Shown here one piece after another: positions 1,569-22,240 of a DNA stretch of 22,240 nt (position 1 is the stretch's first letter; each line of letters opens with the position of its first letter). Below the pieces are notes generated by a model, which did no database searches, was not told the DNA's origin, and worked only from the letters and a program-made list of their open reading frames with translations. The stretch lies in the NCBI GenBank assembly GCA_905214855.1, contig CAJMNU010000014.1, positions 1 through 22,240 on the forward strand, written 5' to 3'. The position numbers and the translations under genes are program-made. Source of the DNA: an uncultured bacterium (GTDB taxonomy: Bacteria > Bacillota > Clostridia > Lachnospirales > Lachnospiraceae).

Positions 1569-2102
1569 ATGGATATCGGTACAAAACTGAAAGAACTTCG
1601 CATTCTCAAAGGACTTACTCAAGAAGAGTTAGCAGACCGTGCAGAGCTTTCCAAGGGATTTATTTCCCAACTTGAACGCAATCTGACTTCTCCATCCATC
1701 CAGACACTTATGGATATTCTGCAATGTCTTGGAATAGGTATTGGTGATTTTTTCAGTGAAACACAGGAAGAACAGATCGTCTTCGGAAAACATGACTATT
1801 TTGAGAAATACGATTCGGAATTAAAAAATAAGGTTCAATGGATCATCCCAAATGCACAGAAAAATAAAATGGAACCAATTCTTCTGACATTAGAAGAAGG
1901 AGGCTCTACATATCCGGACACTCCACACGAAGGGGAAGAATTCGGCTATGTTTTATCCGGAAGCCTTTCCATCCACCTAGGTTCTAATATATACAAAGCA
2001 AAAAAAGGCGAATCATTTTATTATACAGCCGACAAACCACATTATCTTACGACTAAAACAGGTGCTGTCCTGATTTGGGTCAGCTCACCACCAAGTTTCT
2101 AA
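1569..2102 (+). CDS. XRE-family regulator with C-terminal cupin domain
   Basis: A 177-residue cytoplasmic DNA-binding protein. Residues about 4-62 form an XRE helix-turn-helix (LKELRILKGLTQEELA, then SKGFISQLERN and SPSIQTLMDIL). Residues about 105-175 form a small cupin (PHEGEEFGYVLSGS, then the turn KKGESFYY and PHYL). This architecture matches E. coli PuuR and many regulators of polyamine genes, where the cupin senses a small molecule. It is the first gene of the pot operon, 12 nt before potA, so a polyamine-responsive regulator is a reasonable inference. GGAGG lies 12 nt before the ATG, a long spacing, but no better in-frame start is present. Confidence 0.9.
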   Translation: MDIGTKLKELRILKGLTQEELADRAELSKGFISQLERNLTSPSIQTLMDILQCLGIGIGDFFSETQEEQIVFGKHDYFEKYDSELKNKVQWIIPNAQKNKMEPILLTLEEGGSTYPDTPHEGEEFGYVLSGSLSIHLGSNIYKAKKGESFYYTADKPHYLTTKTGAVLIWVSSPPSF

Positions 2103-2114
2103 GGAGGATTTATT

Positions 2115-3191
2115 ATGGGTCAGCCACTGATTGATTTAAAAAACATTACCAAAAGCTATGACGGACAGATTGTTTTAGACAATCTCAGCTTGACTGTAAA
2201 AGAAAATACTTTCGTCACGCTCCTTGGTCCCAGCGGATGTGGAAAAACTACTACACTGCGTATTATTGGAGGTTTTGAAACTCCAGATAAGGGAAATGTC
2301 ATCTTTGACGGACAGGATATCACAAAACTTCCGCCTAACCAAAGACAACTCAACACTGTTTTTCAGAAGTATGCTCTGTTCCCTCATATGAACATTGCGG
2401 ATAACATTGCATTCGGACTGAAGATCAAGGGAAAATCCAAATCTTATATTCAAGACAAAATTAAATATGCCTTAAAATTAGTCAATTTACAAGGATATGA
2501 AAACAGAAGTGTTGACTCTCTCAGTGGTGGTCAGCAGCAGCGAATTGCCATTGCAAGAGCCATCGTCAACGAACCAAGACTGCTTCTTTTGGATGAACCT
2601 CTTGGTGCTTTGGATCTAAAACTCCGTCAAGACATGCAATACGAACTGATCCGTCTAAAAAATGAGCTTGGGATCACATTTATCTATGTCACACACGATC
2701 AGGAAGAGGCACTTACTATGTCTGATACCATCGTAGTCATGAATCAGGGATATATCCAGCAGATGGGAACGCCAGAACAGATTTACAATGAACCTGAGAA
2801 TGCATTTGTTGCTGACTTTATCGGTGAAAGCAATATTGTCAATGGCTTGATGTTACATGATGAACTGGTAGAGATCTTTGGAGCAAAATTTGCCTGCGTA
2901 GATAAAGGATTCGGCATCAAAAAACCCGTCGATGTTGTGATCCGTCCAGAAGATATCGACCTTGTAGAACCAGAAAAAGGAACTTTAGTAGGAACAGTGA
3001 CTCATCTGATCTTCAAAGGTGTTCATTATGAAATGGAAGTCACAACTCCGGATGGTTTTGAGTGGCTGGTACATAGCACAGATATGTTCCCAGTTGGTCA
3101 AAAGGTTGGCATCCATGTAGATCCTTTTGATATCCAGATCATGAACAAACCAGCTTCAGAAGATGAGGAGGCAGTGGGTGTCAATGAATAA
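2115..3191 (+). CDS. potA: Spermidine/putrescine ABC transporter ATP-binding protein PotA
   Basis: The cytoplasmic ATPase that powers polyamine import. In the 358 residues I see Walker A GPSGCGKT (38-45), Q-loop Q84, ABC signature LSGGQQQR (136-143), Walker B LLLLDEP (156-162), the H-loop histidine 194 and a C-terminal TOBE-like region (about 280-345, [11 protein letters not shown]). Length and order match PotA. An AGGAGG site at 2104-2108 directly follows the regulator stop codon and gives an unambiguous start. The end overlaps the start of potB. Specificity for polyamines, rather than another substrate of this importer class, rests on the PotD-like domain two genes downstream. Confidence 0.95.
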
Positions 3192-4008
3192 ATTATTACA
3201 AAAGAAATATCTTGCCGCCCCTTATGTGGTATGGATGATTGGTTTTACCATCATCCCTCTCCTCATGATCGTATATTATGGTCTGACTGATAAAACAGGG
3301 GCATTCACACTTGCAAATATACAGGCGATCGGAACAGCGGAACATTTAAAAGCACTTGGACTTTCTTTACTTCTTTCCCTGATCAGCACGCTTTTGTGCC
3401 TTCTGCTAGCCTACCCGCTTGCTTTAATCCTTAGAAACCGCAATATTGGACAGGGAAGTTTTATCCTTTTCATCTTCATTCTTCCTATGTGGATGAATTT
3501 CCTTTTAAGAACATTGGCATGGCAGACACTCTTGGAAAAAAATGGAGTCATCAATGGCATTCTGTCTTTCTTCCACCTGCCTCAGATCAGTATCATCAAT
3601 ACTCCTGCTGCCATTGTCCTTGGTATGGTATATAACTTCCTGCCATTTATGGTACTTCCACTCTATAATGTATTGGTAAAAATTGATGATAACACGATTT
3701 ATGCAGCCAGAGATCTTGGTGCTAACGGGATTCAGACATTTTTCCATGTCATTTTTCCTTTAAGCATCCCAGGAATGATCAGCGGCATCACTATGGTCTT
3801 TATTCCTGCCTTGACCACATTTGTTATCTCTAATTTATTAGGCGGAAGCAAAATCCTGTTGATCGGAAATGTCATTGAACAGGAATTTACAAAAGGAAGC
3901 AACTGGCATCTCGGCTCCGGACTTTCTCTTGTACTGATGGTCTTTATCCTCATCAGCATGGGACTGCTTGCCAAATATGATAAAAACGGGGAGGGAACTG
4001 CATTCTGA
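3178..4008 (+). CDS. potB: Spermidine/putrescine ABC transporter permease PotB
   Basis: An integral membrane permease with about six membrane segments. The EAA loop that docks on PotA reads [14 protein letters not shown] and continues FPLSIPGM. Starts are ambiguous: ATG at 3163 lies ahead of any site, GTG at 3178 sits 6 nt after AGGAGG (3166-3171), and ATG at 3184 sits 12 nt after it. I chose the GTG for its spacing; ATG 3184 gives MNKLLQKKY and is the main alternative. All choices overlap the end of potA, which indicates translational coupling. Its stop TGA shares one base with the ATG of the next gene. Product length of about 275 residues is normal for PotB. Confidence 0.93.
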
Positions 4009-5942
4009 TGAAATCCTACAACTCAAAATTCAAACGTTTTTTTGAAGATTTTTACCTTGTTCTGGTACTCATCTTCCTGTATGCTCCCATTGCTACCATG
4101 ATGGTACTCTCCTTTAATACATCAAAATCACGTACTCAATGGGGAGGCTTTACATTAGACTGGTATGCAAAAATGTTTGAGAGTTCTGCTATAACAGAGG
4201 CACTCTATAACACACTGCTTATCGCATTTTTATCTGCTGCCATTGCTACCTTGATCGGTACTGTCGCAGCACTTGGTATCAGCTCAATGAAGAAATTTCC
4301 ACGTACCATCTTAATGGGAATCAACAATCTTCCTATCTTAAACTCTGAGATCGTAACCGGAATTTCTTTGATGTTGGCATTTATCGCTTTTGGTATTTCT
4401 CTGGGATTCAAAACCATTTTGTTATCCCATATCACATTCAATATTCCTTATGTCATTCTGAGTGTTATGCCAAAATTGCGTCAGACCAACAAATACACTT
4501 ATGAAGCTGCAATGGATCTGGGTGCAGGTCCTATTAAAGCCTTTTTTAAGGTGGTATTTCCGGACATCATGCCCGGTGTACTCTCTGGCTTTTTAATGGC
4601 TTTCACCATGTCACTGGATGATTTTATCATCACACATTTTACCAGAGGAGCCGGCATCAATACCCTTTCCACATTAATTTATAGTGAAGTGCGTCGGGGT
4701 ATCAAACCTTCCATGTATGCCCTCTCCACAGTCATTTTTATCACAGTACTGGCACTTCTTCTTATCACCAACTTCTCTCCAGAGAAACCTGTGGTATCAG
4801 GGAATACAGAAGAGACTGCATCCAAACACCAAAAGAACCACCACAGACAGCAATTCAAAAAAGGTATGCTTGTTGCAGCAGCATTCTGTGTCGTTGCCAC
4901 TGTTTGTTTTTCCACCTACAAACACTATATGATATCTAATTCTAACGAACTGTATGTGTATAACTGGGGTGAATATATCGATGAGAGTGTCATTGAGCAG
5001 TTTGAAGAAGAAACTGGAATCCATGTAACATATGACCTGTTTGAAACCAATGAGGAAATGTATCCTATCATTGAAGCAGGAGCTGTACAGTACGATGTTG
5101 TCTGTCCTTCTGACTATATGATCCAGAAAATGGCTGAAAATAACCTTTTAGCAGAGATCAACTTTGACAATATCCCGAATCTTTCCTATATCAATCCAGA
5201 ATATATAAAGCGTTCCAGAAGTTTCGACCCACAAAACCTTTATTCTGTACCATATTGTTGGGGAACGGTAGGAATTCTTTATAACACCAGCCGTATTGAA
5301 GAACTTGGTGTACCTGCTCCAACCAAATGGTCAGATCTTTGGGATCCCCATTATCAGGGAGAAATTCTTATGCAGGACAGTGTGCGTGATGCCTTTATGG
5401 TTGCCCTGAAATCTTTGGGATATTCCATGAACACCACAGATACCACACAGCTTCAGGAGGCAAAAAATCTTCTGATCGATCAGAAACCTCTGGTACAAGC
5501 CTATGTCATTGATCAGGTTCGTGACAAAATGATAGGCGGTGAGGCAGCTGTTGGTGTCATCTATTCTGGTGAGATGCTCTATATACAGGAAGAAGTTGAA
5601 AATCTGGGATTGGATTATTCTCTGGAATATGTGATCCCTGAAGAGGGAACGAACATCTGGATCGATTCTTGGGTAATTCCAGCAAACGCAAAAAACAAGG
5701 AAAATGCAGAAAAATGGATCAATTTCCTCTGCCGTCCAGATATTGCCAAGAAAAACTTTGAGTACATCACATACCCAACACCAAATCAGGGCGCATATGA
5801 TCTTCTTGATCCAGAACTCCAGAACAATCTTGCTTTGTTCCCAGACATCAGCAAACTCCAGACTTCTGAAGTCTTCCAATACCTTGGAGACGATGCTGAC
5901 CAAGTCTACAATGCATTCTGGAAAGAAGTAAAGGCAAAATAA
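4008..5942 (+). CDS. potCD: Fused polyamine permease PotC and substrate-binding protein PotD
   Basis: One 644-residue reading frame holds two normally separate subunits. Residues 1 to about 255 are the PotC permease, with an EAA loop AAMDLGAGPIKAFFK (167-181). A charged, His/Lys-rich linker (about 257-285) leads to an extra membrane segment (about 287-303) that would place the rest outside the cell. Residues 314-644 match PotD: YNWGEY (W320, Y323), PSDYMIQKM, DSVRDAF (D457, D461), IWIDS (W551, D553) and TYPTPN (Y589). These align with the polyamine-contacting Trp, Tyr and Asp residues of E. coli PotD, except that a Tyr (519) replaces one Trp and Asp 461 replaces a Glu. The gene has no frameshift and ends the operon before a terminator. 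No lipobox is needed because the binding domain is tethered. Confidence 0.93.
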   Translation: MKSYNSKFKRFFEDFYLVLVLIFLYAPIATMMVLSFNTSKSRTQWGGFTLDWYAKMFESSAITEALYNTLLIAFLSAAIATLIGTVAALGISSMKKFPRTILMGINNLPILNSEIVTGISLMLAFIAFGISLGFKTILLSHITFNIPYVILSVMPKLRQTNKYTYEAAMDLGAGPIKAFFKVVFPDIMPGVLSGFLMAFTMSLDDFIITHFTRGAGINTLSTLIYSEVRRGIKPSMYALSTVIFITVLALLLITNFSPEKPVVSGNTEETASKHQKNHHRQQFKKGMLVAAAFCVVATVCFSTYKHYMISNSNELYVYNWGEYIDESVIEQFEEETGIHVTYDLFETNEEMYPIIEAGAVQYDVVCPSDYMIQKMAENNLLAEINFDNIPNLSYINPEYIKRSRSFDPQNLYSVPYCWGTVGILYNTSRIEELGVPAPTKWSDLWDPHYQGEILMQDSVRDAFMVALKSLGYSMNTTDTTQLQEAKNLLIDQKPLVQAYVIDQVRDKMIGGEAAVGVIYSGEMLYIQEEVENLGLDYSLEYVIPEEGTNIWIDSWVIPANAKNKENAEKWINFLCRPDIAKKNFEYITYPTPNQGAYDLLDPELQNNLALFPDISKLQTSEVFQYLGDDADQVYNAFWKEVKAK

Positions 5943-6094: not shown

Positions 6095-7060
6095 CTATAC
6101 AACCGCCAAAAATGCCCATGAAAAAATCATCACTACATTTCCCAAAAATACATAACGCAATGCTTTTCCTGAATTTTTCCACTCTCCTGACGCAATTCCC
6201 CATAAATTAGAAATGATCAATGCTAAGGCATTAAAGATCACCCATCCTGTCACGGTTGCACTTTCTCCTGCCTGACAGGTAAAAATGCCATAAAGGCAGA
6301 GTGCCGCATACCATATGATCGCTGTGACAAAGAGTTTTTCCGTTGTCATCCATGCTTCTGCCTGCGGCAAACCACGCATCATCTTGTTTTTCTTAATCTG
6401 TGGCAGACAGTAGCATGTGGCAGCCATAGAACCTCCAAAAATCACAAGAAGCCATGATGCTGCTGAAATTCCGATATCTCCGATCCCTAATTCTTGCATT
6501 GCCGCATTCATATTTCTTCCATATCCAAATCCAAGATTCATTAATGCAGAGCCGATACCAGAACAAACTGCAAACCACATTCCCTTTTTCATATGATTTC
6601 CGTTCTGTCCACGTTCCCGTATCCTTCCTCCAACAGTGATCAGGATGATACCTGCTGCGCTCAACAAAAGCCCAACAAGTAAACTTCCCACATTCATTTC
6701 CTGTGCCATATCAGGATGCACCAGAATCGGGAACAAAGCACCCCCTATAATGGAGATTCCCATAGAGATACCATACAGAAGTGCCATTCCCAAAAGGTCA
6801 ATTCCCTTTGTAAAACAAATGGCGGAGATCCCCCACATGACACCACACAATAATACAACCGCTGCCTCACCGGGGTATTTCAAATAGACTGAAATACTCC
6901 CTGGTGCCTGCATCCATGTCCATCCGACTGCAATACAAAGGCAAAATATATTATAAATCTGCCAAAATAATGCCCATCCGAAAGGTTTATACTTTTTATA
7001 TCCCAGTCCAAAACTCCCCTGACAGATTCCCGCCAGCAATAAAATAATCCCATTCTGCAT
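6095..7060 (-). CDS. RhaT-family sugar:proton symporter-like protein
   Basis: A 321-residue, very hydrophobic membrane protein with about ten predicted spans. It resembles E. coli RhaT: the block GVMWGISAICFTKGIDLLGM matches RhaT [21 protein letters not shown], followed by a Gly-rich GISMGISIIGG and a C-terminal GEWKNSGKALRYV like RhaT KEWNNAGR. RhaT imports L-rhamnose with a proton. It starts 71 nt after the GH95 gene with AAGG 7 nt before the ATG and no terminator between, so the two are probably one unit. A 6-deoxysugar such as L-fucose or L-rhamnose, or a related monosaccharide, is the plausible substrate, but this is inferred from family and neighbour only. Confidence 0.82.
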   Translation of the reverse strand: MQNGIILLLAGICQGSFGLGYKKYKPFGWALFWQIYNIFCLCIAVGWTWMQAPGSISVYLKYPGEAAVVLLCGVMWGISAICFTKGIDLLGMALLYGISMGISIIGGALFPILVHPDMAQEMNVGSLLVGLLLSAAGIILITVGGRIRERGQNGNHMKKGMWFAVCSGIGSALMNLGFGYGRNMNAAMQELGIGDIGISAASWLLVIFGGSMAATCYCLPQIKKNKMMRGLPQAEAWMTTEKLFVTAIIWYAALCLYGIFTCQAGESATVTGWVIFNALALIISNLWGIASGEWKNSGKALRYVFLGNVVMIFSWAFLAVV

Positions 7061-7131: not shown

Positions 7132-9360
7132 TCAGACAAGTGCCAACTCACTGTGTGCCTGCATGCTCACTTCTTTCCACTCTCCATTACACTGCACACG
7201 AAGGCTTTGTGCCTTTTCTCCTGTCTTTATCACGGCATGGACTACCTGACCGTCCTGCCAGTCAATAGACACTTCTGCATCAGATAAAATGCGTACTCCA
7301 TAGATATGACCACTGTTCCATTCTTTTGGAAGTGCAGGAAGAAGTTTCAGGATTCCTGGCTCTGCATGTACCAACATTTCTACGATTCCGGCTGCTGCTC
7401 CCATATTTCCGTCAATCTGGAAAACACACCCATTCCTTTTTGGATGCGTGTCCATAAGATTCAAAGAAGTGGACTCTCTTAATAGTTTCAAAATACACTG
7501 ATATGCTCCCTCTCCATCTTCCAGACGTGCATACATACAGATCATCCATGCACAGCTCCAGCCTGTATAACCACCTCCATTTTCCAGTCGGTGTTCCAGT
7601 GTGCGCTTTGCTGCTTCCATATATTTTGGTGTGCGTTCCCATGTGATCTGATTTGATGGATACAAAGCATACAAGTGGGAAATATGTCTATGCCCTGGTT
7701 CTTTTTCACCATAATCCTCTCTCCACTCCTGAAGCTGTCCATAACTTCCGATTTTCATTTTTGGAAGTTTTGTGAGTGCCATTTTTGCCCAATCTACCAA
7801 TTCCCCCTCAATCTGTAAAACAGAGGATGCCTCAATGTAATCCGTAAACAGATCATGCAAAATCTCGCTGTCCATAGTACATCCCGCACAGATACTGCTC
7901 ATCTTACCTGATCGAGTGATAAATGTATTTTCAGGTGAGACAGATGGACAGACGATCAGCTCTCCCTGATCTTCTATCATAAAGTCTTCAAAGAATCGCA
8001 CTGCATCTTCCAGACACGGATACATGCGTGCCAGAAATGCCCGATCGTTGGTATATCTAAAATGAGTCAAAATATGCGTACAAAGCCAAGCTCCCCCTAA
8101 AACCCAATACGATGCTGGAAGATAAATATCCTGCGGTGCAGTGTCTGCCCATACATCTGTATTATGGTGGGCAGTAAAGCCCCTGCATCCATACATGCGT
8201 CTTGCCGTCTCTTTTCCGCTTATCCTCATCCTCTCGATCAAGCCAAACAGTGGTTCATGACATTCTGACAGATTGCAGCTTTCTGCTGGCCAATAGTTCA
8301 TTTCTGTATTGATATTGATCGTATATTTGGAATCCCATGATGGCTGCATTTCTTCATTCCAGATTCCCTGAAGATTTAACGGCAAAGATCCCTGACGGCT
8401 TCCTGCGATCATCAGATAACGCCCAAACTGATAATAACTCTCTGCCACCTTTGGATCATTTGGATGTTCCAGCAATCTCTCATGGAACGGCATTTCCTCA
8501 TCCCCAAAAGATCCCTCCTCTGCATCCAGAACAAACTCCACTCTGTCAAACAGTTCTTTATAATCTTTCGTGTGGCGTTTGAAAAGCTGCACAAATCCCA
8601 TCTTCTCTGCATCGGCTAATCTCTGCTGCACTGTTTTTTTCGGATTTTGCCCGTAAAAACTGGTTTCACCGGAAATGAAAAGCACAATTTCTTTACAATT
8701 CTTTACTACAAGATGTTCTCCGATTGCCGCAAGTGTTCCTCCTAATACCACAGCCGAAACCGCTGTACAAAACTCCACTCCATTTGGACCGGACTGTCCC
8801 TGCATATAAATGGTGTGATCCCCAACTCTTCCTGTCTCCTCATAAAACCTTGCTCTTTGCAGCAACACACTGAGTGAAAGTTCTTCTTCGCCCTCTGCCT
8901 TCATATGGACAACCATCACATGATCTGGATATGAAGCAAAATATTCTTTTGAAACACTGCCTTTCTCTGTCTCAAAATATTCTGTTACCATCCCCTTCTG
9001 TAGGCACAGTTCTCTTCTGTACTTTTCCACATAATCAGGTGCGTTCTGATAGGTGATCCACAGATCTCCCAATGTTTGGTATGGTCTCTGACTCTGCGGT
9101 GTTCCTGTAAACGCATACAGCAAGATCTCCTCCGCTTCCTGAAAACGTTCCTCCAGAATGAGTTGTCTGACCTTATCCAAGTTTTCCCTTGCATCTGGAT
9201 TGATCCTGTCTACATGTCCGCCATAATACAAACTGTCCAGATTCATCTGAATCCTTTCTTCCTGATATCCCCCGAATATCATTGCGCCCTGACGACCATT
9301 TCCAATAGGGTATGCCTGCATCCAGTCTTTTGCTGGCTGATTCTCCCAAATAACTCCCAT
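7132..9360 (-). CDS. Glycoside hydrolase family 95 (alpha-L-fucosidase / alpha-L-galactosidase)
   Basis: This enzyme removes terminal alpha-L-fucose or alpha-L-galactose from glycans. The 742 residues show the GH95 order: IGNGRQGAMIFGG near the N-terminus, NLQGIWNEEMQPSW (329-342), TININTEMNYWPAE (347-360), HHNTDVW (398-404), PSVSPEN (472-478), TGWSCAW (599-605) and FQIDGNMGAAAGI (648-659). By motif match to Bifidobacterium bifidum AfcA, N349 and N351 assist the base, E477 is the acid and D650 completes the site. Residue 347 is Thr where AfcA has His. The ATG at 9360 is chosen because AAAGGAG lies 7 nt upstream; upstream in-frame ATGs at 9402 and 9366 lack a spaced site. No signal peptide, so cytoplasmic. 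Confidence 0.93.
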   Translation of the reverse strand: MGVIWENQPAKDWMQAYPIGNGRQGAMIFGGYQEERIQMNLDSLYYGGHVDRINPDARENLDKVRQLILEERFQEAEEILLYAFTGTPQSQRPYQTLGDLWITYQNAPDYVEKYRRELCLQKGMVTEYFETEKGSVSKEYFASYPDHVMVVHMKAEGEEELSLSVLLQRARFYEETGRVGDHTIYMQGQSGPNGVEFCTAVSAVVLGGTLAAIGEHLVVKNCKEIVLFISGETSFYGQNPKKTVQQRLADAEKMGFVQLFKRHTKDYKELFDRVEFVLDAEEGSFGDEEMPFHERLLEHPNDPKVAESYYQFGRYLMIAGSRQGSLPLNLQGIWNEEMQPSWDSKYTININTEMNYWPAESCNLSECHEPLFGLIERMRISGKETARRMYGCRGFTAHHNTDVWADTAPQDIYLPASYWVLGGAWLCTHILTHFRYTNDRAFLARMYPCLEDAVRFFEDFMIEDQGELIVCPSVSPENTFITRSGKMSSICAGCTMDSEILHDLFTDYIEASSVLQIEGELVDWAKMALTKLPKMKIGSYGQLQEWREDYGEKEPGHRHISHLYALYPSNQITWERTPKYMEAAKRTLEHRLENGGGYTGWSCAWMICMYARLEDGEGAYQCILKLLRESTSLNLMDTHPKRNGCVFQIDGNMGAAAGIVEMLVHAEPGILKLLPALPKEWNSGHIYGVRILSDAEVSIDWQDGQVVHAVIKTGEKAQSLRVQCNGEWKEVSMQAHSELALV

Positions 9361-9416
9361 ATTCATTCTCCTTTTCCCACTTTTACAGAGATTTTCCCAC
9401 ATACGTTCTTAACCTC

Positions 9417-17870: not shown

Positions 17871-18716
17871 TCAAAATCGTTTCCTTTTTCCCAATTCCCA
17901 AAATGCGATCCCTGCTGCCACAGAAACATTTAAAGAATCTACCTCACCTGCCATTTCAATACGCACGGTATAATCACAATCCGCAATGGTTTCGGATGCC
18001 AGTCCTTCCCCTTCTGTTCCCATAACAATTGCTAATTTTTCCTCAGACTGCAACACTGGATCATCCAAAGAGATCGAATCTTCTCTAAGAGCCATTGCCA
18101 CTGTCTTAAATCCTAACCCCCTCAATATTTCCATTCCTTTTTCAGGCCAGATCTCCTCTTTTTGATGGAAAAATGTCCAAGGGATCTGAAAAACTGTCCC
18201 CATACTGACACGACTTGCTCTTCTGTACAAAGGATCGCTGCATCCTGCTGTCAATAATACCGCATCCATATGTAAAGCTGCTGCGGAACGAAAGATTGCT
18301 CCAACATTTGTAGGATTCATCACATTTTCCAAAATAACGATCCTCTTTGCATTTTCACAAAGACTTCTGATATCCGGCAATCTTTTCCGCCGCATCACAC
18401 ACAAAGCCCCTCTGGTCAATGGAAAACCTGTCAGTTTTTTTAACACCTCAAATTCAGCTGTATAAACAGGGATATCACCACAGCGGATGATCAGCTCCTT
18501 TGCCTCCCCCTCTATATGTTTTGTTTCCACCAATAGGGAAACTGGCTCATATCCAGCACAAAGTGCCCTCTCAATTACCTTTGGACTTTCTGCAATAAAA
18601 AATCCAGATTCTGGTTCATTATAATGGAATAACTGCCCCTCTGAAAGACGTGCATACATGTCCAGCTCCGGTGCATGAAACTCTTCAATTAATTTGATAT
18701 TCTTTCTGTACATCAT
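17871..18716 (-). CDS. TrmH/SpoU-family RNA 2'-O-methyltransferase
   Basis: A 281-residue SAM-dependent methyltransferase of the knotted SPOUT class acting on rRNA or tRNA ribose. The three family motifs are present: NPTNVGAIFRSAAAL (134-148), IVMGTEGEGL (230-239) and EVDSLNVSVAAGIAFW (258-273). The N-terminal part (about 1-110) is the substrate-binding extension. Which RNA position it modifies is not evident. ATG 18716 or the adjacent ATG 18713 may be used; the binding site (GAGATGG) is weak. It is the first gene of a minus-strand run with moxR, DUF58 and DUF4129. I found no clean -35/-10 pair upstream. Confidence 0.92.
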   Translation of the reverse strand: MMYRKNIKLIEEFHAPELDMYARLSEGQLFHYNEPESGFFIAESPKVIERALCAGYEPVSLLVETKHIEGEAKELIIRCGDIPVYTAEFEVLKKLTGFPLTRGALCVMRRKRLPDIRSLCENAKRIVILENVMNPTNVGAIFRSAAALHMDAVLLTAGCSDPLYRRASRVSMGTVFQIPWTFFHQKEEIWPEKGMEILRGLGFKTVAMALREDSISLDDPVLQSEEKLAIVMGTEGEGLASETIADCDYTVRIEMAGEVDSLNVSVAAGIAFWELGKRKRF

Positions 18717-18806
18717 TCAAATCCATCTCTTTTCTCATCACTTTTATACGTCATTATTTTATCATAGATACAAAATCATGGGGGAAAAAAATATTATTTT
18801 TTTAAC

Positions 18807-18835
18807 TTGACAATTTTCACATAATTCGTTAAACT
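18807..18835 (+). promoter_or_regulatory. Promoter of the speD leader RNA
   Basis: TTGACA (18807-18812), a 17-bp spacer and TAAACT (18830-18835), predicting a start near 18842. It faces the polyamine synthesis genes and lies 90 bp from the divergent methyltransferase gene. Confidence 0.7.
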
Positions 18836-19027
18836 ACAGACAATGTGTGATATGAGTTTTTACAGAGTATCCATACAAATATTTTCTCTGACCACCCAGT
18901 ACAGGGTTCAGGCCACACGGACAGCCGGGTCAACTGCCGATTGGCATTCTATGTTTATAGTTTGCCACTATTGATTGAGCAAACGCTCAATTTTATAAGT
19001 TGGTTACTTTATAACCGTAGCGCAGAT

Positions 19028-19216
19028 GCGCATATCAACTTGTAAAACGTCAATATGAGTAGTAAGGTAAGTATTTGCTATATAAACTCTCAATAAAAAG
19101 CTCATTCTATTTACATGATCAGATCAAATTGGACGGATCGGCAAACCTCTATATATAATCTGCCATCTTTCTATTTGTATCACATTTTGAGAGGATAGTT
19201 TACAAGTGATATGCGT
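19028..19216 (+). promoter_or_regulatory. Possible antiterminator pairing upstream of speD
   Basis: 19028-19046 pairs with 19199-19216 in 17 Watson-Crick pairs plus one G-U, with a single bulged A at 19038. The second strand includes the whole 5' arm of the terminator (19204-19214), so the two structures exclude each other. The first strand also contains 19031-19037, which can instead pair with 18848-18854. This is the geometry of a transcription attenuator. Confidence 0.6.
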
Positions 19217-19238
19217 CTATGCATATCACTTTTTTATT
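19204..19238 (+). terminator. Intrinsic terminator at the end of the speD leader
   Basis: Arms 19204-19214 (AAGTGATATGC) and 19221-19231 form 11 perfect pairs with a 6-nt loop (GTCTAT), followed by TTTTTATT. It lies 88 nt before the speD start codon. Between them is only a small hairpin near 19266-19285 and no clear promoter. Confidence 0.9.
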
Positions 19239-19325
19239 GCAAAAACGACCATAAATCAAACTGGAAAGTCTTTGGAGAAGGACTCTAAATACTACTACTA
19301 TTATTCAATGTAAGGAAGGACGAAC

Positions 19326-20087
19326 ATGGGGGAAAAGCTAAAACTATATGGATTCAACAATCTGACCAAATCACTCAGTTTTAACATTTATGATATCTGT
19401 TATGCCAAAACAGCCCGTGAACAGCAAGACTATATCAAATACATCAATCAGGAATATAACTCTGACCGTCTCACTAAAATTTTAACCACTCTTACAGACA
19501 TGATCGGTGCTAAAGTACTTCACATCTCCAAACAGGATTACGAACCACAGGGAGCTTCTGTCACTATTCTGATCGCTGAGGAATCCATGATCCCTGCCGG
19601 AGAAACGCAGCTTGCCCACTTAGACAAAAGCCATGTCACAGTACACACCTATCCAGAATACCATCCTGAAACCTTCCTTGCGACATTTCGTGTAGATATC
19701 GATGTTGCAACCTGTGGGGCGATCACTCCGCTTTCCACATTAGACTACCTGATTGGATCTTTTGACTCCGATATCATTACCATGGATTACCGTGTCAGGG
19801 GATTTACACGAGATGTAAATGGACAGAAACTTTTTATCGATCATCCGATCACATCGATCCAAAATTATATTGCACCTGAAACATTACGCCGCTATGATGC
19901 TGTAGATATCAATGTGTATGGTGCGAATCTATTCCACACCAAAATGATGCTCAAAGACATCTATCTGCAAAATTATCTATTTAAAACAGATGTCTATGAA
20001 CTTCCTCCTCAGACCCGTCTGGAGATCATGAATAATCTTCGCAGGGAAATGATCGAAATTTTCAGCGGAAGAAATATCTATCACTAG
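19326..20087 (+). CDS. speD: S-adenosylmethionine decarboxylase proenzyme
   Basis: This enzyme makes decarboxylated SAM, the aminopropyl donor for spermidine. The 253 residues align along their length with E. coli SpeD, not with the short Bacillus/Thermotoga form: [20 protein letters not shown] at the N-terminus, [12 protein letters not shown] (71-82), the self-cleavage site [13 protein letters not shown] (99-111), CGAITPL and [13 protein letters not shown]. Cleavage before Ser102 would yield the pyruvoyl cofactor. GGAAGG lies 6 nt before the ATG. It is the first protein gene after the structured leader and starts a compact spe operon, with 41 nt to the next gene. Confidence 0.97.
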
Positions 20088-20128: not shown

Positions 20129-21580
20129 ATGCACGATCAGACACATGCGCCAATTTATGAGGCGTTAGAAAATTTCAAGAAAATGCGGGTAGTTCCTTTT
20201 GATGTCCCAGGGCATAAAAGAGGACGTGGAAATCCAGAACTCACTGCCCTTTTAGGAGAGGCATGTGTAAGTATGGATGTCAATTCTATGAAACCACTGG
20301 ATAATCTCTGTCACCCTGTCTCTGTCATCCGTGAGGCAGAGATTTTAGCCGCAGAAGCCTTTGGGGCAGCCCATGCCTTTTTAATGGTCGGCGGCACTAC
20401 ATCCGCTGTACAGAGTATGATCCTTTCTGTTGCAAAAAGAGGGGAAAAGATCATCCTCCCCAGAAACGTACACCGCAGTGTCATGGGAGCTATGGTTTTA
20501 TGTGGGGCAATTCCTGTTTATGTGAATCCAGAATGTGATGACAGGCTTGGGATTCCTCTGGGAATGAGTGTATCTGCGGTTGAAAAAGCCATCTTGGAAA
20601 ACCCAGATGCAAAAGCGATTCTCGTAAATAACCCGACCTATTATGGTATCTGCTCTGATATCAGATCCATTGTATCTCTTGCACATGCACATGGAATGTT
20701 ATGTCTTGCAGATGAAGCACATGGAACGCATTTTTACTTTGGGGAGAACCTTCCCATCTCAGCCATGGCAGCAGGAGCTGATATGGCAGCTGTTTCCATG
20801 CATAAATCTGGTGGAAGTCTGACACAAAGTTCCCTTCTTCTGACTGGTCCTGCCATGTCAGAGGGTCATGTACGTCAGATCATCAATCTGACTCAGACAA
20901 CCAGTGGATCTTACCTTTTATTGTCCAGTTTAGATATTTCCAGAAGAAATCTTGCTCTTAGGGGAAAAGAAAGTTTTCAGCGTGTTGCACAGATGGCAGA
21001 ATATGCAAGAGCAGAGATCAACAAAATTGGAGGCTACTATGCATACTCCAAAGAACTGATCAACCATGACAGTATCTTTGACTTTGATGTGACAAAACTC
21101 TCTGTCAATACTCTGGATATCGGGCTTGCCGGCATTGAAGTCTATGACCTTCTGCGTGATGACTACGACATCCAGATTGAATTTGGAGATCTTGGCAATA
21201 TCCTCGCTTATCTCTCCATTGGTGATCGTCAGAGAGAAATTGAGCGTCTTGTAAGTGCCCTGTCTGAGATCCGCCGCCGTTTCAGCAAAAGCAAATCTGA
21301 TCTTATGAAACAGGAGTACATCGACCCAGCTGTTGCAATATCCCCACAGGATGCCTTTTATGCTGATAAAGAATCTCTGCCAATCCGTGAAACTGCTGGA
21401 AGAGTCTGCAGTGAATTTGTCATGTGCTATCCGCCTGGAATCCCGATCTTAGCACCTGGTGAACGCATCACAAAAGAAATTTTGGACTATATTGAATACG
21501 CAAAGGAAAAGGGCTGTTCCATGACAGGTCCAGAAGATGCAAAAATTGAACACTTAAATGTTTTGAAAGGAGTAGTCTGA
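20129..21580 (+). CDS. speA: PLP-dependent Orn/Lys/Arg decarboxylase, SpeA type
   Basis: A 483-residue fold-type I decarboxylase of the short Bacillus subtilis SpeA class, cytoplasmic. Motifs are FDVPGHKRGRG (24-34), MVGGTTSAVQSMI (86-98), LADEAHGTHFYFG (193-205, D195 holds the PLP ring nitrogen) and SMHKSGGSLTQSS (223-235, K226 binds PLP). A C-terminal domain ends with CYPPGIPILAPGE. Arginine decarboxylase, giving agmatine, is the likeliest activity because the gene lies between speD and speE, but lysine or ornithine cannot be excluded by motif. AAAGGGG before the ATG supports the start. Two nt separate its stop from speE. Confidence 0.92.
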   Translation: MHDQTHAPIYEALENFKKMRVVPFDVPGHKRGRGNPELTALLGEACVSMDVNSMKPLDNLCHPVSVIREAEILAAEAFGAAHAFLMVGGTTSAVQSMILSVAKRGEKIILPRNVHRSVMGAMVLCGAIPVYVNPECDDRLGIPLGMSVSAVEKAILENPDAKAILVNNPTYYGICSDIRSIVSLAHAHGMLCLADEAHGTHFYFGENLPISAMAAGADMAAVSMHKSGGSLTQSSLLLTGPAMSEGHVRQIINLTQTTSGSYLLLSSLDISRRNLALRGKESFQRVAQMAEYARAEINKIGGYYAYSKELINHDSIFDFDVTKLSVNTLDIGLAGIEVYDLLRDDYDIQIEFGDLGNILAYLSIGDRQREIERLVSALSEIRRRFSKSKSDLMKQEYIDPAVAISPQDAFYADKESLPIRETAGRVCSEFVMCYPPGIPILAPGERITKEILDYIEYAKEKGCSMTGPEDAKIEHLNVLKGVV

Positions 21581-21582
21581 TT

Positions 21583-22240
21583 ATGGAATTATGGTTTTCT
21601 GAATCCCAAACCCCAAATGTCAAACTTTCCATCCGTGTCAACCGCCAGCTTTACAGCGGACAAAGCGAATTTCAACGGATCGATGTATTTGAATCCCCTG
21701 AATTTGGACGTTTTCTCACTCTGGATGGATATATGATGCTAACCGAAAAAGACGAATTTATCTATCATGAGATGATCACCCATGTTCCAATGGCAGTACA
21801 TCCCCATGTAAAAGATGTTCTGGTGATCGGGGCTGGGGATGGTGGTGTCATCCGTGAGCTGACCCGTTATCCTGAAATCGAACACATTGATATGGTAGAA
21901 ATCGATCCCCTTGTAGTAGAAGTCTGCAAAAAATATCTTCCGCAGACCGCATGCCGCCTGGATGATCCCAGAGTTTCAATTCACTATGAAGATGGACTAC
22001 GCTTTATCCGCTCCTGCGAAAGCTGTTATGACCTAATCATTGTGGATTCCACAGATCCGTTTGGACCCGGAGAAGGTCTCTTCACTCTGGAATTTTATGG
22101 TAACTGTTATAAAGCACTCCGCCCTGACGGCATCATGGTCAATCAGCATGAAAGCCCATTCTACGCAGAAGATGCCGCAGCATGTCAACGTGCCCATAAG
22201 CGGATTGTACAATCTTTCCCTATCAGCAAAGTATTTCAGG
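21583..22240 (+). CDS. speE: Spermidine synthase (cut by window edge)
   Basis: Transfers the aminopropyl group from decarboxylated SAM to putrescine. 219 codons are visible; the usual length is about 280. Motifs are LTLDGYMMLTEKDEFIYHEM (45-64), the SAM-binding VIGAGDGGVIREL (81-93), VEIDPLVVEVCKKY (105-118), YEDGLRFI (135-142) and DSTDPFGPGEGLF (155-167, with the catalytic Asp155). The ATG at 21583 follows AAAGGAG by 10 nt; that site lies inside the end of speA, so the genes are coupled. Nothing odd is seen in the available part. The reading frame is open to the right edge. Confidence 0.96.
   Translation, partial: MELWFSESQTPNVKLSIRVNRQLYSGQSEFQRIDVFESPEFGRFLTLDGYMMLTEKDEFIYHEMITHVPMAVHPHVKDVLVIGAGDGGVIRELTRYPEIEHIDMVEIDPLVVEVCKKYLPQTACRLDDPRVSIHYEDGLRFIRSCESCYDLIIVDSTDPFGPGEGLFTLEFYGNCYKALRPDGIMVNQHESPFYAEDAAACQRAHKRIVQSFPISKVFQ

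What the first reader, a model, noticed from the sequence alone, without database searches (positions are those of the whole stretch)
18842..19238. Three-way switching RNA ahead of the spermidine synthesis operon
Seen: the 7-mer TGATATG occurs at 18848-18854 and 19207-19213, and its complement CATATCA at 19031-19037 and 19222-19228. They allow exclusive pairings: 18848/19031 (leader domain closed), 19028-19046/19199-19216 (18 bp, one bulge, destroys the terminator) and 19204-19214/19221-19231 (terminator). That is how transcription riboswitches and attenuators are built. The next gene is speD, so SAM, decarboxylated SAM or a polyamine are plausible signals. The pairing is seen; the ligand and the switching role are inference. 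I know of no described riboswitch with this layout before speD.
Basis: partly seen in the sequence, partly recalled or inferred. Interest (0 to 1): 0.82.

Follow-up and report, generated by a model that had tools for sequence, protein, structure and literature searches.

The report
Polyamine-gene leader RNA switch
The stretch before this spermidine operon is one copy of a large, strongly conserved RNA that sits before several kinds of spermidine-making or polyamine-importing operons in Gram-positive bacteria and most likely switches them off when enough spermidine is present; one short piece of it is catalogued so far as a streptococcal 'small RNA'.

Summary
In detail: the 7-mers, the terminator and the 18-bp alternative helix are in the sequence. 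The real object is bigger. Window 18862-19090 is a conserved RNA of about 230 nt, followed by a terminator (19204-19235) and speD-speA-speE. Rfam covers only 18889-18940, as RF02440 'SpF59 sRNA (ldcC RNA)'. Of 179 distinct copies, collected by RNA sequence and not by gene, 171 have a polyamine gene next (speA 60, speD 50, potA 31, carboxy(nor)spermidine synthase 30); the other 8 have at most 232 nt of DNA after the anchor. These are SAM-dependent synthesis, SAM-independent synthesis and uptake, so spermidine is the likeliest shared signal. Terminators occur in 144 of 146 leaders, and their 5' arm tends to pair with the conserved CAACTTGT strand, which otherwise closes an internal helix. Best reading: an OFF transcription riboswitch for spermidine, with no SAM-family match. 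A published pneumococcal transcript (up to 327 nt) fits its terminated product. Ligand binding and switching are untested. Ten text searches of an open-licence library found no description of it.

The parts
18807..18835 (+). likely promoter (TTGACA, 17 nt, TAAACT); start of transcription near 18842
   Evidence: consensus scan only, 10 of 12, not above chance as a scan (5 found, 6.1 expected); inference
18862..18883 (+). 5' strand of the closing helix P1 (ACAGAGT ... CAAATATT)
   Evidence: alignment A1; coordinates; own partner better than swapped ones in 91 of 103 copies, but not in the window itself (-11.1 vs -13.4)
18889..18940 (+). Rfam RF02440 domain: P2 NGACC/GGGTCN, inner hairpin GGC/GCC around ACGGACA, TGCCGA
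   Evidence: 63.4 bits, cut-off 37.2; outermost P2 pair TA 47, GC 29, CG 17, 97 of 101 paired; missing in some relatives
18943..18966 (+). hairpin P3 (GGCA ... TGCC)
   Evidence: 82 cells changed on both sides against 24.3 in shuffles and at most 43 when slid, 101 sequences
18969..18975 (+). 5' strand of the long-range helix (TATTGAT), partner 19049-19055
   Evidence: nearly invariant, no change on both sides, so conservation only
18975..18990 (+). hairpin P4 (TTGAGC/GCTCAA)
   Evidence: 93% of cells paired (at most 56% when slid); 15 cells changed on both sides against 1.7 in shuffles, but one slid version reaches 17
18991..19001 (+). 5' strand of P5 (TTTTATAAGTT)
   Evidence: 97.4% of cells paired with 19037-19047 (at most 55% when slid), no change on both sides
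19002..19016 (+). hairpin P5b (GGTTA/TAACC)
   Evidence: 7 cells changed on both sides against 0.6 in shuffles; GATT/AATC in L173 and L175 (by eye)
19028..19046 (+). antiterminator 5' strand
   Evidence: pairs with 19199-19216; comparative test
19037..19047 (+). 3' strand of P5 (AACTTGTAAAA), the strand shared by the folded domain and the antiterminator
19072..19090 (+). 3' strand of the closing helix P1 (TATTTGCTATATAAACTCT)
19199..19216 (+). antiterminator 3' strand, overlaps the terminator 5' arm
19204..19235 (+). intrinsic terminator: stem 19204-19231, T-run 19230-19235
   Evidence: 144 of 146 leaders have one
19326..20087 (+). speD, S-adenosylmethionine decarboxylase
   Evidence: TIGR03331, 394.1 bits, cut-off 255.8
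20129..21580 (+). speA-type Orn/Lys/Arg decarboxylase, substrate not determined
   Evidence: Pfam OKR_DC_1, 219.3 bits; below all NCBIfam cut-offs
21583..22239 (+). speE, spermidine synthase, runs off the window
   Evidence: TIGR00417, 263.5 bits, cut-off 249.55

Best explanation
A cis-acting transcription-termination riboswitch. The nascent leader 18862-19090 folds into a large conserved receptor domain that binds an end product of the pathway, most likely spermidine. When bound, helix P5 (18991-19001/19037-19047) holds the CAACTTGT strand, the terminator at 19204-19235 forms, and speD-speA-speE is off. When unbound, that strand instead invades the 5' arm of the terminator (19028-19046/19199-19216), the terminator is lost and the operon is read. 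Shown by comparison: the conserved RNA, the gene association, the terminator and the competing complementarity. Inferred: that it binds a ligand directly, that the ligand is spermidine, and that the sign is OFF.
For: Of 179 distinct copies 171 have one of the reference polyamine proteins encoded within 582 nt of the anchor; the other 8 end within 232 nt. Several operon types share the RNA: speD-speA-speE, speA-speE, carboxy(nor)spermidine synthase-nspC, potABC(D). 113 of 248 consensus columns are at least 90% identical over 101 sequences, 78 of them outside the Rfam part. Covariation in P2, the hairpin above it and P3; compensatory changes in P2 and the inner hairpin of distant copies (by eye). 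Covariance model R1 finds 23 of 23 chosen held-out copies and 0 of 28 controls. Terminators in 144 of 146 leaders; their 5' arm pairs with the CAACTTGT strand better than the mean of its shuffles in 140 of 144 (mean -16.4 vs -9.4 kcal/mol), in all four gene classes. In the Streptococcus-like L206 both strands differ from the usual letters and still pair, 9 bp. A pneumococcal transcript of 318-327 nt between SP0915 and SP0916 is in print (passages); L206 predicts 327 nt from inferred start to the end of the T-run.
Against: No binding or expression data. P5 and the long-range helix are nearly invariant, so covariation does not prove them; P4's changes are matched by a slid version. Energy folding gives P5 plus terminator in 99 of 113 leaders, neither P5 nor antiterminator in 13, and the antiterminator only in the window, so computed energies do not show two balanced states in most copies. 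Only 91 of 144 terminator arms beat all 30 shuffles; 8 of 146 arms have no contiguous run of 6 nt. P1 in the window is weaker than with swapped partners. Duplicate loci were not merged.
Confidence: 0.7

Rival explanations
1. Same cis-acting riboswitch, but the ligand is not spermidine: SAM, decarboxylated SAM, putrescine, agmatine, cadaverine or methylthioadenosine.
For: The window's own operon uses SAM and an Orn/Lys/Arg decarboxylase. Pot transporters are annotated for spermidine and putrescine alike.
Against: Thirty copies precede the carboxy(nor)spermidine route, which is given as an alternative to the decarboxylated-SAM route (passage of PMC7531197), and 31 precede potA. Putrescine is a substrate of both synthesis routes, not their end product (established pathway knowledge).
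Confidence: 0.2
2. A protein, not a small molecule, binds the leader and decides between terminator and antiterminator.
For: Protein-controlled attenuators can have the same terminator/antiterminator layout (recalled). I did not search for a partner protein, so no call excludes one.
Against: The large number of conserved positions (113 of 248 columns) and several hairpins look more like a ligand-binding RNA; this is a judgement, not a test.
Confidence: 0.1
3. A trans-acting small RNA, as the pneumococcal copy is now catalogued.
For: Rfam RF02440 type 'Gene; sRNA'; short transcripts SN20/F59/srn235/M7 in print.
Against: A polyamine gene follows in 171 of 179 copies and the other 8 are cut short; terminators share complementarity with the leader in every gene class, which a trans sRNA does not need.
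Confidence: 0.03
4. Leader-peptide or T-box attenuation.
For: A 43-codon frame starts at 18843 in the window.
Against: The relative L046 has ATG directly followed by TGA at about the same place; conservation of the frame was not tested further. No T-box match in 18000-19600: at E up to 10 only RF02440 and two matches at E 9.4 and 9.8 appear.
Confidence: 0.02

Closest known systems
RF02440 SpF59_sRNA (ldcC RNA), Rfam 15; pneumococcal F59/SN20/srn235/M7
   Same: The 54-nt Rfam model matches 18889-18940 over its full length (63.4 bits); the pneumococcal transcript lies between SP0915 and SP0916, and SP_0916 is an arginine decarboxylase.
   Different: Rfam holds only one domain of about 230 nt and types it as an sRNA; that domain is missing in some relatives that keep the rest.
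Spermidine riboswitch, SAM-I variant (Salvail et al. 2023, PMC10853860)
   Same: Before ldcC, speB, speD and speE genes; OFF by transcription termination.
   Different: Thirteen examples, SAM-I aptamer; no SAM-family match here at E up to 10.
odc1 motif (PMC8632094)
   Same: Candidate element before a polyamine gene in bacteria (passage).
   Different: Named for ornithine decarboxylase, with a uORF and a proposed pseudoknot (passage); no sequence comparison was made here.
speF motif
   Same: Leader before a polyamine gene (passage of PMC11477304).
   Different: Described there from alphaproteobacteria with no ligand found; no sequence comparison beyond Rfam was made.

Membership tests
RF02440 SpF59_sRNA | score at or above the family's gathering cut-off | tested here: met
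   63.4 against 37.2 bits, full model length
RF02440 SpF59_sRNA | acts in trans as a small RNA | not testable with these tools
   fixed place before polyamine genes (171 of 179, 8 cut short) speaks for a cis role
SAM-I variant spermidine riboswitch | SAM-I aptamer sequence and structure | tested here: not met
   no SAM family match in 18000-19600 at E up to 10; no comparison with the variant's own consensus, which is not in the tools
SAM-I variant spermidine riboswitch | located before polyamine synthesis genes | tested here: met
SAM-I variant spermidine riboswitch | selective binding of spermidine | not testable with these tools
   needs in-line probing
riboswitch (general) | conserved structured domain shared by different operons of one pathway | tested here: met
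riboswitch (general) | expression platform with mutually exclusive pairings | tested here: met
   terminators in 144 of 146; competing complementarity better than the shuffle mean in 140 of 144; energy folds alone do not show both states
riboswitch (general) | direct binding of a small ligand that alters expression | not testable with these tools
   no bench data
T-box | match to the T-box family | tested here: not met
   no match at E up to 10

The most novel reading that the evidence does not exclude
A new and common class of spermidine riboswitch, independent of the SAM-I variant, that governs all three routes to spermidine (SAM-dependent, carboxyspermidine and import) in Bacillota. Its binding core is the 3' domain plus P1, while the part that Rfam lists is an optional accessory domain; the pneumococcal 'sRNA' F59/srn235/M7 is its terminated leader.
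Probability: 0.6. Interest if true: 0.87.

Novelty: new variant of a known kind. Interest (0 to 1): 0.75.

Why it matters
Polyamines bind RNA strongly, and specific polyamine riboswitches were long sought; the one accepted class that I found is a rare SAM-I variant with 13 examples, and its authors expected more classes (PMC10853860). This RNA was found here in 179 copies, has a clear gene set and gives a direct test. It would explain how many gut and soil Gram-positives set spermidine levels, and it would turn a pneumococcal transcript now listed among trans-acting sRNA candidates into a cis switch.

Tried and rejected
Helix 18848/19031 as the closing stem: rejected, partner in 1 of 10 copies. 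SAM or T-box aptamer: no Rfam match. RNAalifold's pairing of GACC with the later GGTC: I prefer P2 with GGGTC because its outer pair covaries. A CGG/CCG stem inside the core: the GGC/GCC stem is preferred because L173, L175, L206 and L207 flip it and break the other (by eye). Counting contiguous complementary runs for the antiterminator was a poor measure: 83 of 146 at 7 nt or more, against 53 for the 3' arm and 35.8 for shuffled arms; duplex energy replaced it. My terminator scan was too lax (146 of 146 leaders, 78 shuffled, 39 coding); one search is stricter. An earlier scan gave 58 of 71 leaders, and pairing each strand with leaders of other loci gave only a small difference (-21.0 own vs -18.9), since the strand is conserved. 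A hairpin P6 near 19020-19031 is not claimed: slid versions reach more changes (43 against 37). Phage records gave no match, plasmid records one, a Paenibacillus replicon. Viral contigs gave 15 matches to a 16-base pattern, none of which the model accepts.

Papers: PMC10853860 outline, introduction, one results section and passages; PMC8632094, PMC9971707, PMC2887815, PMC3395615, PMC12323649, PMC7531197, PMC10043782 and PMC11477304 passages only; PMC6429828, PMC7266159, PMC6296669 and PMC10942264 term look-ups without a hit; others in listings only. 'Not in print' rests on searches of an open-licence library; most subscription papers and the bioRxiv collection are not in it.

Rows dropped or chosen: 12 of the 118 pattern matches were rejected as not the motif, and L042 afterwards; record titles were seen for 80 of the 118. 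A1 holds 68 of 105 copies plus the window; one search used 101 sequences; searches used 115, 146 and 146 leaders without merging duplicates; the 23 held-out copies were chosen by me; the 20 loci were chosen from the rows that had no locus yet or matched mostly the 3' half; one search merged 200 instances to 179.

Full report
WHAT IS THERE. The simple terminator scan finds the hairpin at 19204-19231 and expects 1.2 such sites by chance, so the window alone proves little. A promoter-like TTGACA/TAAACT pair lies at 18807-18835. Downstream are speD, an Orn/Lys/Arg decarboxylase (called speA here) and speE.

A KNOWN FRAGMENT. Rfam reports one family in the window: RF02440 SpF59_sRNA (ldcC RNA), 18889-18940, 63.4 bits against a cut-off of 37.2. 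In 18000-19600 only two other matches appear at E up to 10, at E 9.4 and 9.8.

A MUCH LARGER RNA. After dropping 12 that do not hold the motif and later L042, 105 remained. Record titles were printed for the first 80 of the 118; the kept ones among them are Bacillota except L065, a MAG labelled Spirochaetes. Alignment of 68 of the 105 with the window shows conservation from about 18862 to 19090, far beyond the Rfam part. Over 101 sequences 113 of 248 columns are at least 90% identical, 78 of them outside the Rfam span. A covariance model of 163 positions built from 22 sequences finds 23 of 23 other copies that I chose and none of 28 control loci (13 rejected pattern matches and 15 viral contigs) at E 0.01. 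The copies found include two Streptococcus-like genomes (79.5 bits each) and L065 (71.7 bits).

STRUCTURE. Covariation: P2 outer pair TA 47, GC 29, CG 17, 97 of 101 paired; the hairpin above it, 155 cells changed on both sides against 39.2 in shuffles and at most 48 when slid; P3, 82 against 24.3 and at most 43 when slid. P4 has 15 against 1.7, but one slid version reaches 17; its 93% paired cells fall to at most 56% when slid. In L173 and L175 P2 reads TGCCC/GGGGCA instead of TGACC/GGGTCA, and the inner GGC/GCC stem reads GCC/GGC; L206 and L207 flip the inner stem too (by eye). The closing helix P1 pairs better with its own partner than with swapped ones in 91 of 103 copies, though not in the window. 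P5 (TTTTATAAGTT/AACTTGTGAAA) and TTATTGAT/GTCAATAA are almost invariant and rest on conservation.

TWO ARCHITECTURES. In L171, L172, L174 and L177 the 5' strand of P1 runs almost straight into the P3 hairpin, without the Rfam domain, while the 3' domain is intact; L176 also lacks the domain, but its P1 5' strand is unclear. Of 20 further loci that I chose, nine had no core by pattern; of these L211 and L221 by eye carry a diverged core and L209 keeps only its end. So the part that Rfam lists looks optional, and the common part is P1 plus the 3' domain. All 14 loci named or counted here as without a core by pattern precede speA or speD. How common the short type is was not measured.

GENES. Merged, there are 179 copies. 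I searched 2,500 nt after an anchor in the RNA for nine reference proteins. In 171 copies the nearest one starts 147-582 nt from the anchor: speA 60, speD 50, potA 31, carboxy(nor)spermidine synthase 30. The other 8 have only 50-232 nt of DNA after the anchor. Other genes in between were not excluded one by one; the short distances leave little room. In an earlier count 24 of 29 potA cases were followed by potB. NCBIfam supports the examples: PotA and NspC above their cut-offs, the carboxynorspermidine synthase (421.8 against 800), PotB and PotD below theirs. The copies were found by RNA sequence, never by gene. The three routes share spermidine, not SAM. This is the main ground for the ligand, and it is inference.

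SWITCH. Terminators of -12 kcal/mol or better lie between RNA and gene in 144 of 146 leaders (duplicates not merged), against 14 of 146 shuffled leaders and 3 of 140 coding stretches. The 5' arm of the terminator pairs with the CAACTTGT strand at a mean of -16.4 kcal/mol against -9.4 for shuffled arms; 140 of 144 are below the mean of their shuffles and 91 of 144 below all 30; a control strand of the same RNA is weaker in 126 of 144; the effect holds in all four gene classes. In L206 the strand and the terminator arm differ from the usual letters and pair over 9 bp. The same strand closes P5, so the two states exclude each other. Against this, minimum-energy folds show P5 and the terminator together in 99 of 113 leaders, the terminator without P5 in 13, and the antiterminator only in the window: energy alone does not prove two balanced states.

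IN PRINT. A pneumococcal short transcript lies between SP0915 and SP0916: SN20, 869478-869791 (table passage of PMC2887815), F59, 869510-869591 (table passage of PMC3395615), M7/srn235/Spd_sr49, 869478-869804, 327 nt (table passage of PMC12323649). SP_0916 is an arginine decarboxylase (PMC7531197). In L206 the distance from inferred start to end of T-run is 327 nt. The match of length is suggestive; L206 is unnamed. PMC12323649 says that M8 and M12 were taken out as cis elements; M7 is not named there. The known spermidine riboswitch is a SAM-I variant with 13 examples (PMC10853860).

SPREAD. RF02440 over its cut-off: 11 of 299 genomes drawn from the phylum of G001, the genome of Blautia schinkii L060, 31 of 398 from the class of G002, the genome of Bacillus sp. 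V3B L028, both with stricter filters that lose weak matches; of 14 named control genomes only Lactococcus lactis. Window RNA by blastn at E 1e-5: 60 of 299 genomes of the family of G001. G001 and G002 are counted among these.

VERDICT. It works like a terminator riboswitch; it is a member of RF02440 by score; it has no match to the SAM-I aptamer. Cis attenuation is very likely, direct small-ligand sensing likely, spermidine the best ligand.

Noticed in passing
window 1569-5942 +: HTH-cupin regulator followed by an ABC ATPase with TOBE domain, a 281-aa frame and a permease fused to a solute-binding protein: looks like a polyamine-type importer operon, without an RF02440 match in front (Rfam, Pfam; the 281-aa frame was not scanned; the polyamine reading is inference).
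   Followed up: partly
window 18848-18854 and 8 other distinct loci (L026, L034, L040, L046, L083, L118, L152, L154): TGATATG upstream of the RNA, near the expected transcription start, without a conserved partner; role unknown.
   Followed up: partly
L087, L098, L114: Leaders with the Rfam domain and the TTATTGATT start but with most of the 3' domain missing or replaced; L087 and L098 precede potA. The opposite of the short type.
   Followed up: no
window 19057-19090: GAGTAGTAA can also pair locally with TTTGCTATATAAACTCT, competing with P1; both partners are conserved, so this may be a second switch.
   Followed up: partly
L065: A copy in a MAG labelled Spirochaetes with speD-speA-speE downstream: transfer or binning error.
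   Followed up: no
window 7132-9402 -: Family 95 glycoside hydrolase beside a RhaT-like transporter at 6095-7060; ordinary carbohydrate genes.
   Followed up: no
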